From the NCBI RefSeq assembly GCF_002994745.2, contig NC_037091.1, positions 1,612,001-1,676,000 of the forward strand: DNA of 64,000 nucleotides. Reading direction: 5' to 3'. This document shows positions 266 to 2,835 of the stretch, piece by piece. Below the pieces are notes generated by a model. That model did not search any database and was not told the origin of the DNA. It was given only the letters and a program-made list of their open reading frames with translations. This DNA comes from Rosa chinensis. Its lineage: Eukaryota > Streptophyta > Magnoliopsida > Rosales > Rosaceae. Both the position numbers and the translations under genes were made by a program. Within the stretch, counting starts at the first letter, position 1. Every line of letters begins with the position of its first letter.

Positions 266-727
266 GGGGGGGGTGTATTCAATCTAGATTTTAAATGATT
301 TTGTTTGACTTTTTATAATCCTTGTATTTTGAAAATCCATAGATTGTTTTAATTCCATATGGATTTTAATAGATTCTAATGTATTGTATTAGCAAGATTT
401 GTTTGGATTCTGTTAAGTGCATAGATTGTTTTAAACCTACAATGCACTAGAAAATATTTGTCTAACAATATAAAACATTTTAATTAACATGTTACACAAA
501 ACCAACCAATTGATAAAAGACACGATATTCTATATACATAAGATCATTGTTAATCATCCACACAAGGAGTATAACATGTTTTTTCAGTTTGTGGAACTGA
601 TAGACTCTGCTTAATCAAACATTGACAAGTCTTAGTAGACAAAGCAAGCTTTTCAATTTTTATTTTTTCCTTTCGGTACACAAAAGGCAAGCATATGCAT
701 ACTGCTTAGCTATGCTGAGATCCCATT

Positions 728-2525
728 TCATGAGACTCCCAACAACTGTCTTTATGCCATGCTGCACAAAAAGTATGATATCAAAAGGTTATGTTGCGCA
801 GACACAGGAAAACTCATGATCGATCAACTACACTAGACAGCAGAGGCAACATAAAAAAATTAAAATTGGGAACCAGACATCTGATTTTTACCTTAAGGCT
901 AAGAGTGACAGTTGTAGGGTAATAGCGATCAGAAACTTTCTCATCTGTCAACTAGAAACTTGGAAAAGTTCCACTGAATATCATCTCCAAAGACACCCAT
1001 TTGCCTAACTTCAAGAACTTGTTGAAATGACTATAGGGGAAAATCAGGTATAAACTTTCTAAACTTGCAATTGTCAAAAGGAATTACAAGTAAGCGGTCA
1101 TTTAGTACAGTCATTTGTTACTACTATTCTAGTACTCTGATCTGACCTAAGACTTATAAACAAGGCTATCCTCTAAATAATGGGAATGAGTTTTGCATGC
1201 TCATAGATGGAATCATGGAAATGCAGTTCCACATCATTCACAGAAACAATAATGAGCTTGTGGTTGAAAAACCATATGACTGGCAGAAAATTGTAACATG
1301 TGTGAGCAACGAGAAAGTTAATGTTACAACATGTTCATGATCAACATTGTCAAATATCGGAAATTCTGATCTGAAACGAGGGGAAGACAAACTCTTCAAT
1401 CTGTTCATTACTTCTGGGTTCCTGTGCAGCAAACTTATTGCAAGGGAAAGCCAGTATCTTGACTCCTACATCAACCCACAGCGAATCACACAAAAAGGAC
1501 AAAATAATGAAAAATGTGGATTCATAACTTTTGAACTAGAATACTAGATATAATACATTTGAAAATGAGATTTCTGATTTACACTAGGAGGATTATTGTT
1601 TCTCTAATAAAATAAGACTATTCCATATGCAAAACAGTGAAAATTTATATGAAAGTTAAACAAGCAGCACAGCAGTTGTGCACATTCTAGAGAGGAAGTC
1701 AATGGAATCAAGAAATGTAACCCACATGATAAAAGTAAAAAATTCGATGGTGTCACCTCAAGAACACAGTTCCTAAACTAGTTACCATATTACAGTTTAA
1801 CTGTCCTCAAAATGATAGGCATGAAAGAACAATAGTAGTTCAAAATTCAAACCTTGATCTTTATACTTTTTATATAGTTGATTCAGCTAGTTTGAGTTTG
1901 TTGGTCCACTGCAGCAAATTAGAGGAAAAAGAAGTGAAAAGATAATAACTTTCCTATTTCTTAAAAATAAGAGAAAATGTGAGAAGCTACGGATGTGAAG
2001 ATACCATTTGGAAGCAACTTTGACAATGAGCAGAACTTTCCCTTATAAACGCTATGATCAGCATCATTCTCCTTTGCATCCTGTACTAACATTCAAATGA
2101 ATATAATAAAAGAACATTAGTTTCTCGACTCAACCTAATTAACTTCCTACATAGATTCAACAGAAACCAAACTGAACTCTCACATCCTCATCCCAATTCT
2201 CTTAATGTTTCCAATTTCAGGAACTCAATGGATCAAACACAATTGTCTATCGTCCAATTGTTTCCCTAGACCTGCCGACATCCACTCCTAATCACCAACT
2301 GAGTTCTTAGGCATCTAAGAGTAAAATTGAGCAACAAGCTTCAATCTTGTGCATAATTGATTGGTTCCAATATTTGCAGAATCTAAAAATTGATGAGAAA
2401 TTACCTTGGTTCGTAGAGAATAGAGAAAGGTTGAGGTCTGTTCGTCTTCTACATCGAGGCCTTTTCATCTTCAGAATGAAGAAAGAGAGCAAAAACAAAA
2501 GACGTCAAAATCTCACGTCTAGATA
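728..2525 (-). pseudogene. Captured glutathione peroxidase gene with introns, inactivated
   Basis: Six exon remnants of a plant GPX (thiol peroxidase using thioredoxin) lie in order on the minus strand: about 2525-2405, 2080-2005, 1908-1853, 1465 to about 1340, 1030-892 and 761-728. Most keep AG acceptors and GT donors. They read, in pieces, DAKENDADHSVYKGK then LLIVKVAS (after a 1-nt loss); a TG|T-split catalytic Cys then GPTNSN, a TAG stop, LNQLYKKYKDQ; ILAFPCNKF.AQEPRSNEQIEEF; SEFPIFDNVD (frame changed); WNFSKFLVD then DRY-PTT (frame changed); and LLGVS-stop. Exon 3 is 56 nt against the usual 62, and the loss creates the stop. The usual Gln of FPCNQFG is Lys. There are several frameshifts, so no functional enzyme is expected. 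Retained introns mean capture at the DNA level, not retroposition. It lies wholly inside the transposon at 266-2775. Confidence 0.85.
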
Positions 2526-2546
2526 GAGGATTTCTAATAGGGTTTG

Positions 2547-2558
2547 GTATTTATACCA
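2547..2558 (-). promoter_or_regulatory. TATA-like box ahead of the captured GPX copy
   Basis: On the minus strand the sequence reads ggtataaatacc, about 25-40 bases ahead of the presumed 5' UTR of the GPX copy. It is inside the transposon, so promoter sequence may have been captured along with the exons. Activity is unknown. Confidence 0.35.
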
Positions 2559-2835
2559 AGCACCCTAGAATCCTACACAATCAAGTATTTAATAAAATTC
2601 TTGAAAATCTTTGGACTTTTGAATACCACCAGATTTGGAAGGACTTTTTAAAATCTAAATTGAATACTACAAGATTTTAAAGGACTTTTCAAAATCTTAA
2701 TTGAATACCACATGATTTTAAAGGACTTTTAAAATACAAAACAATCCAATAGAATCCTAATTGAATACACCCCCCTTATTTTCAGAAAATTCTTATGAAC
2801 ATAGGTGGAACTAGGATTTGATTTTTTTTTTTTTT

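What the first reader, a model, noticed from the sequence alone, without database searches (positions are those of the whole stretch)
266..2775. A Harbinger-like transposon carrying a near-complete glutathione peroxidase gene, introns included
TTA-flanked inverse termini enclose six ordered GPX exon remnants on the minus strand, from exon 1 to the LLGV(S)-stop end, most with splice sites. Pack-type capture is best known from MULEs, usually as fragments. A Harbinger-type element holding a whole intron-containing gene plus possible promoter is rare and would be a new host-gene-carrying family if multicopy.
Basis: partly seen in the sequence, partly recalled or inferred. Interest (0 to 1): 0.88.

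Follow-up and report, generated by a model that had tools for sequence, protein, structure and literature searches.

The report
Rose transposon carrying an antioxidant gene
This is a rose jumping gene of the PIF/Harbinger type that holds five of the six exons, with introns, of a glutathione peroxidase gene behind its own promoter-like end; the carried gene is broken, and relatives with the same ends hold pieces of other plant genes, so the family likely picks up host genes repeatedly.

Summary
The element is real. Window 266-2775 has inverted ends, a TTA duplication and glutathione peroxidase (GPX) sequence on the minus strand. The host is a rose, and its genome (G000) holds an intact parent gene on C7. 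The captured piece runs from inside intron 1 (about 2251) to about 190 bases past the stop (about 536): exons 2-6 with introns.

The GPX copy is broken (5 frameshifts, 1 stop), has no start codon and shows no coding constraint. GPX-bearing copies were found at five places, a lower bound.

The ends belong to a family: 40 right and 40 left ends scored, of which 22 pair into elements of 1.0-9.8 kb, two with PIF/Harbinger transposase sequence. Other members carry ABCB, legumain and purine-permease pieces. The four confirmed cargoes all lie on the transposase strand, behind the conserved promoter-like end (1 in 16 by chance).

This is a Pack-PIF family; such elements are known from maize, rice and grapevine. 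New here: host, cargo and the repeated sense placement. Transcription is untested.

The parts
263..265 (.). TTA target-site duplication, left copy
266..312 (+). left terminal inverted repeat, 8 G then TGTATTCAATCTAGATTTT
   Evidence: pair 268-312 / 2731-2775, 73% complementary over 45; alignment score 53
266..430 (+). left end shared by the family
   Evidence: 40 matching places, 40 of 221 candidates scored
352..385 (+). TIR-like direct repeat inside the left end
   Evidence: score 32, equal to the maximum of 1000 control stretches
433..492 (+). 60-base stretch resembling the inside of a transposase-bearing relative (L090, 85%)
536..727 (-). captured 3' flank of GPX; capture edge near 536 (the C6 copy keeps a few more parental bases)
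728..761 (-). GPX exon 6 remnant (HGIKTL/LGVS, stop), one frameshift
892..1056 (-). GPX exon 5 remnant; 5' part decayed, start approximate, two frameshifts
1346..1465 (-). GPX exon 4 remnant, one frameshift
1853..1908 (-). GPX exon 3 remnant, one stop
2005..2080 (-). GPX exon 2 remnant, one frameshift
2081..2251 (-). captured 3' part of GPX intron 1; capture edge near 2251
2252..2391 (.). stretch not matched to the parent gene and not part of the shared right end; present in the C6 and C1 copies
2392..2775 (-). right end shared by the family: predicted promoter, leader and splice donor (GT at 2404-2403)
   Evidence: 40 matching places, 40 of 276 candidates scored; 18 right ends aligned
2548..2555 (-). 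TATAAATA, predicted core promoter of the transposon
   Evidence: in 18 of 18 aligned right ends
2619..2741 (.). three 41-base tandem repeats of TIR-like sequence
2731..2775 (-). right terminal inverted repeat, 6 C
2776..2778 (.). TTA target-site duplication, right copy

Best explanation
Window 266-2775 is a non-autonomous PIF/Harbinger-type transposon of a rose that holds broken exons 2 to 6, with introns, of a glutathione peroxidase gene, likely captured once and then spread by a transposase supplied by relatives. Shown: the ends, the TTA duplication, the capture edges against an intact parent gene, lesions shared with another copy, the multicopy family, and transposase sequence in relatives with the same ends. 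Inferred: an element that kept its left end and its promoter-bearing right end acquired GPX genomic DNA where the transposase gene stood, was mobilised in trans, and later lost inner parts in the two C1 copies. Predicted and untested: the right end (TATAAATA, leader, GT donor) would transcribe the cargo in sense and could splice its leader to GPX exon 2; both leader ATGs are out of phase with exon 2, so a non-coding or truncated RNA is expected, not an enzyme.
For: Ends and TTA flanks. GPX alignment 418 against a maximum of 63 in 30 shuffles. Intact parent at C7, 166 of 168 codons identical to R. rugosa P0002, no lesion; no family end found in the 3.8 kb read around it. Homology limited to window 536-2251. 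GPX-bearing copies at C6 (full length, 87%), two at C1 (middle deleted) and one partial at C3. Frameshifts at matching or adjacent places in exons 4, 5 and 6 of the window and C6 copies. Family: 22 pairs of ends, 1022-9771 bases; identical TTA or TAA flanks in 12 of 23 elements read, 17 of 23 if changes in the terminal G/C run are allowed. Transposase on the same strand as the cargo, DDE_Tnp_4 32.4 and 44.2 bits against a cut-off of 24.8, located inside two paired elements.
Against: The full-length C6 copy has unlike flanks (TAA/TTT), and 6 of 23 elements do not show a matching duplication. Exons 2 and 5 also hold frameshifts that differ between the window and C6. The left and right TIR are only 73% complementary over 45 bases. 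No autonomous intact copy was read. How the capture happened is not shown; no inner end survives. Window 2252-2391 has no assigned origin.
Confidence: 0.86

Rival explanations
1. Two separate small transposons inserted on either side of an ordinary degenerate GPX duplicate, so the stretch is not one mobile unit.
For: Fusion of neighbouring insertions is the published model for how Pack-TYPE elements start (PMC8903248 section 9).
Against: No inner end with 2 or fewer mismatches of 13 in the window and no significant one by alignment. The same outer ends and cargo recur together at C6, and with the middle deleted at two C1 places. The window has matching TTA outside the outer ends only.
Confidence: 0.04
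2. One reading: a whole GPX gene with exon 1 and its own promoter was captured.
For: Weak exon-1-like matches at 2405 (1-7% of random GT sites do as well); a TATA-like site and an AATAAA at 664.
Against: Homology to the parent ends about 400 bases before its exon 1. The promoter-like region and the 2404 donor occur in family members with other interiors.
Confidence: 0.03
3. The element carries a GPX gene that still works or is under selection after capture.
For: Between the window and C6 copies exons differ less than the rest (21 of 406 against 114 of 1314, p 0.02); most splice borders are kept; a promoter-like end lies in sense.
Against: Five frameshifts and one stop, three of the frameshifts at matching or adjacent places in C6; no Met in the captured exons of the parent protein (P0002); leader ATGs out of phase; 5 synonymous to 14 non-synonymous changes in 130 codons; longest ATG-started frame on the strand 56 residues.
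Confidence: 0.03

Closest known systems
Pack-PIF elements of maize and rice (Gisby and Catoni 2022, PMC8903248; passages and sections 8, 9, 10 read)
   Same: Non-autonomous PIF element with TTA/TAA duplication and host gene DNA between its ends; several copies
   Different: The Pack-PIF example described there holds 163 and 58 bases of genes in elements of about 535 bases; here about 1.7 kb of one gene, five exons with introns. Sense placement behind a conserved promoter-like end was not met in the sections read
Pifvine-3 of grapevine (Benjak and others 2008, PMC2528002; passages seen)
   Same: PIF family whose members hold host sequences including exons and introns, shared by several copies
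   Different: There the host DNA sits in a long 5' region of elements described with ORF1 and transposase; here it stands where the transposase would be, in elements without transposase
Pack-MULEs (recalled; only listing and start of abstract seen, PMC3310237, which says long MULE TIRs hold promoters)
   Same: Works like one: host gene DNA between ends that bear promoters
   Different: Other superfamily: 3-base TTA/TAA duplication and DDE_Tnp_4 relatives; MULEs make about 9-base duplications (recalled)
Tourist-like MITEs (recalled)
   Same: PIF-type ends, TTA duplication, no transposase
   Different: 2.5 kb with gene content, not a few hundred bases

Membership tests
PIF/Harbinger superfamily | 3-base TTA or TAA target-site duplication | tested here: met
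   window TTA/TTA; 12 of 23 family members identical (one read by eye), 17 of 23 with changes in the G/C run allowed, 6 not
PIF/Harbinger superfamily | inverted ends shared with elements that encode a DDE_Tnp_4 transposase | tested here: met
   DDE_Tnp_4 32.4 and 44.2 bits; probe matches inside paired elements of 9771 and 9507 bases; the stretches read are broken
PIF/Harbinger superfamily | second ORF (Myb-like ORF1) | not tested
   the large elements were read only in part
Pack-TYPE (Pack-PIF) | host gene DNA between the ends, with a parent copy elsewhere that lacks the ends | tested here: met
   parent L022 at C7, intact, no ends in the 3.8 kb read
Pack-TYPE (Pack-PIF) | no transposase of its own | tested here: met
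   interior accounted for by GPX over 536-2251; longest ATG frame on the minus strand 56 residues; no separate Pfam scan of the window element was run
Pack-TYPE (Pack-PIF) | mobilisation after capture | tested here: met
   cargo with the same ends at C6 and, middle deleted, at two C1 places; movement itself not observed
Tourist-like MITE | a few hundred bases, no gene content | tested here: not met
   2510 bases with GPX cargo

The most novel reading that the evidence does not exclude
A rose PIF/Harbinger family works as a standing gene trap: its right end keeps a transposase promoter, a leader and often a splice donor, host genomic DNA repeatedly takes the place of the transposase in sense behind it (GPX, ABCB, legumain, purine permease, perhaps P450 and glyoxalase), and the chimeric RNAs regulate the parent genes or feed new exons to them.
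Probability: 0.3. Interest if true: 0.72.

Novelty: new member of a known kind. Interest (0 to 1): 0.45.

Why it matters
It gives one well-bounded case of gene capture in a PIF family: intact parent in the same genome, capture edges, another full-length copy, deletion derivatives, and transposase-bearing relatives with the same ends. If the sense placement behind a conserved promoter-like end holds across more members, it becomes testable whether capture, or the survival of captured DNA, depends on transcription from the transposon's own promoter.

Tried and rejected
Exon 1 at 2404-2463: a protein scan placed better matches elsewhere and a degenerate-codon scan gave support that 1-7% of random GT sites reach; rejected once the parent showed exon 1 about 400 bases beyond the capture edge. 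Captured GPX promoter: rejected, the region is family sequence. Printed name for the ends: text search for four forms of the terminal sequence found 0 papers. Rose or strawberry with MITE and Harbinger terms: 2 papers, neither about this (listing). GPX with Harbinger capture: listings showed none by title or abstract start; that is the limit of those searches. P450-like cargo in element P: Pfam E 0.005, 16.1 bits, below its cut-off of 22.8, not found at 0.01 in whole frames, best PDB matches are engineered proteins at E 0.023; left tentative. Glyoxalase-like cargo in Y: recognised from memory only, no Pfam or PDB match; tentative. The kinase frame in L054 (Pfam 35.2 bits, on the other strand) was dropped from the orientation tally because no left end was found in 5.5 kb, so it cannot be said to lie in an element. 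Elements C and E gave no Pfam family. Cargo was sought with Pfam in six frames of parts of B, H, Y, G, C and E and in three frames of part of P; D, F and the other family members were not scanned that way. Two weak plus-strand Pfam rows in B are below cut-off and have no stretch that passes. Lower exon divergence as a sign of selection: not upheld by the codon counts.

Full report
What is there. Window 266-2775 (2510 bases) begins with eight G and TGTATTCAAT, ends with the inverted form, and has TTA directly outside both ends. The two 60-base ends align with score 53; none of 5000 random pairs from the same window exceeds 32. The 13-base core GGGTGTATTCAAT occurs exactly only at these two places in the window. 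The right end holds three 41-base tandem repeats of TIR-like sequence; the left end holds one TIR-like direct repeat at 352-385, with a score equal to the maximum of 1000 control stretches.

Host. A single-exon mTERF gene of the window is 98% identical to Rosa sericea over its whole length, 93% to R. rugosa over 89% and 94% to R. chinensis over 63%, so the window is from a rose. Its genome G000 has 515 Mb in 53 contigs; the window is C4:1612001-1676000.

Cargo. Pieces read from the minus strand match plant GPX: PDB 2p5q, E 4e-61, and among plant proteins Rosa rugosa and Fragaria vesca at 71% with X counted as mismatch. A frameshift-tolerant spliced alignment to the R. rugosa protein P0002 scores 418, against mean 43.7, sd 6.1, maximum 63 in 30 dinucleotide shuffles and 44 on the plus strand. 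113 of 147 codons are identical, with 5 frameshifts and 1 stop.

Parent gene and capture edges. G000 holds an intact six-exon GPX gene on C7 (L022): 168 codons, 166 identical to P0002, no frameshift or stop, intron 1 of 569 bases. The element matches it only from element position 271 to 1986, that is window 536-2251. One edge lies in intron 1, 171 bases before exon 2 and about 400 bases short of exon 1; the other lies about 190 bases past the stop. So exons 2 to 6 with introns were captured; exon 1 and the GPX promoter were not. Before the parent was found, exon 1 had only weak support.

The promoter-like region. Window 2392-2775 recurs across the genome with other interiors. I aligned 18 right ends: 18 of 18 hold TATAAATA and 9 of 18 hold the AAG|GTAA donor seen at 2404. 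The nine are three GPX-bearing copies, two ABCB-bearing copies and four of group E, for which no cargo was recognised.

GPX-bearing copies. One search lists 51 matches, with 40 of 425 candidates scored, so counts are lower bounds. They include the window; C6:1501952-1504543, 87% over almost the whole length; C1:30349613-30350963 and C1:35277066-35278433, both without the middle part and 97.8% alike; and a partial copy at C3:22950047-22951491, without ends in the 3.7 kb read. The window and C6 copies have frameshifts at matching or adjacent places in exons 4, 5 and 6, and others that differ, in exons 2 and 5. The cargo was therefore broken before they separated. Between them the exons show 5 synonymous and 14 non-synonymous changes in 130 codons, as expected without coding constraint. 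Exons nevertheless differ less than the rest (21 of 406 against 114 of 1314, p 0.02), which I cannot explain.

Family. A right-end search matched 40 places (40 of 276 candidates scored; two of its 42 rows are short second pieces). A left-end search matched 40 places (40 of 221 scored). Twenty-two left-right pairs lie on one strand within 11 kb and give elements of 1022 to 9771 bases. Of 23 elements whose two flanks were read, 12 have identical TTA or TAA flanks (one read by eye because the script failed on it) and 17 do if letter changes in the terminal G/C run are allowed. Six do not, among them the full-length C6 GPX copy.

Transposase. L047 on C3 has a family right end and, on the same strand as the GPX cargo, a DDE_Tnp_4 fragment of 32.4 bits against a cut-off of 24.8. 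A 1001-base probe from it matches at 95% inside the paired 9771-base element on C7, at 94% inside the paired 9507-base element on C5, and at 93% about 3.7 kb from the right end at C6:37539419; an 80% match at C3:22416983 and about 30 places at 67-79% were not followed. The C5 element also holds the other half of the domain, 44.2 bits, with Plant_tran at 24.8. The transposase stretches I read, on C3 and in part on C5, are broken. No left end was found for the C3 element within 7 kb. A 60-base stretch of the window element (433-492) resembles the inside of the C5 element at 85%, as expected if the GPX element came from a transposase-bearing one.

Other cargo. Confirmed by Pfam above cut-off or by PDB: B, an ABCB transporter piece (PDB E 1e-35; Pfam 29.3 bits), with a matching locus at C4:35285941-35288411, 84 and 81% (not checked for an intact gene); H, legumain (Peptidase_C13 80.1 bits and prodomain 25.6); G, purine permease (PUNUT 31.2 bits). 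G also holds an RNase H fragment lying between two parts of its left end, probably a later insertion. With GPX, 4 of 4 confirmed cargoes lie on the transposase strand; with the direction stated beforehand this has a chance of 1 in 16, which is suggestive and no more. Tentative, same strand: a P450-like piece in P, whose segment recurs at 96-98% at C5:11944875-11946311 inside a paired family element, and a glyoxalase-like piece in Y, recognised from memory only. A kinase frame on the other strand at L054 was left out because no left end was found; if it lies in an element, it speaks against a bias.

How it most likely works. A PIF/Harbinger element took up genomic GPX DNA where its transposase stood, and spread with transposase from relatives. 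Fusion of neighbouring insertions is the published model for Pack-TYPE elements (PMC8903248, section 9); no inner end survives here to show it. Transcription from the right end is a prediction. Both ATGs of the leader are out of phase with exon 2, and the parent protein has no Met after residue 9 (P0002), so no GPX protein is expected.

Compared with what is known. Pack-PIFs are described in maize and rice (PMC8903248; passages and sections 8-10) and PIF elements with captured exons and introns in grapevine (PMC2528002; passages). The rose family is a new member of that kind. What I did not meet in the passages read is large intron-containing cargo placed repeatedly in sense behind a conserved promoter-like end; that is worth testing and is not yet established.

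Noticed in passing
window 2836-3689: Inverted arms of 42 bases, 81% complementary, 770 bases apart, with a T-run outside each arm: possibly a second small transposon, MULE-like by its start (recalled).
   Followed up: partly
window 12414-12818: Open frame for a plant self-incompatibility S1-type protein (Pfam 65.2 bits).
   Followed up: no
window 62024-63993: A repeat-rich stretch open in several frames, followed by a copia-type gag frame.
   Followed up: no
window 58306-59629: Two separate RNase H-like frames (RVT_3, 74 and 49 bits), probably remains of non-LTR elements.
   Followed up: no
L054 (C4:51957042-51959540), with L060: Protein kinase frame (Pfam 35.2 bits) near a family right end but on the strand opposite to the other cargoes; no left end found in 5.5 kb, so it may be flanking DNA.
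   Followed up: partly
L056 (C7:62842900-62845411): Two right-end-like stretches of the family, about 1.8 kb apart in the same orientation, possibly nested or tandem insertions.
   Followed up: no
C5:11943444-11947085, C5:64333470-64334891, C3:26660329-26660979, C2:7012356-7014060: Places sharing the P450-like segment of element P at 82-98%; at least one lies inside a paired family element, so this cargo too is multicopy.
   Followed up: partly
P0001 (Prunus yedoensis protein, 257 residues): Predicted GPX protein that looks like two partial GPX copies joined, perhaps a tandem duplicate or a gene-model artefact.
   Followed up: no
window 536-2251 against C6 copy: GPX exons differ less than introns between two broken copies (p 0.02) though codon counts look neutral; unexplained.
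   Followed up: partly
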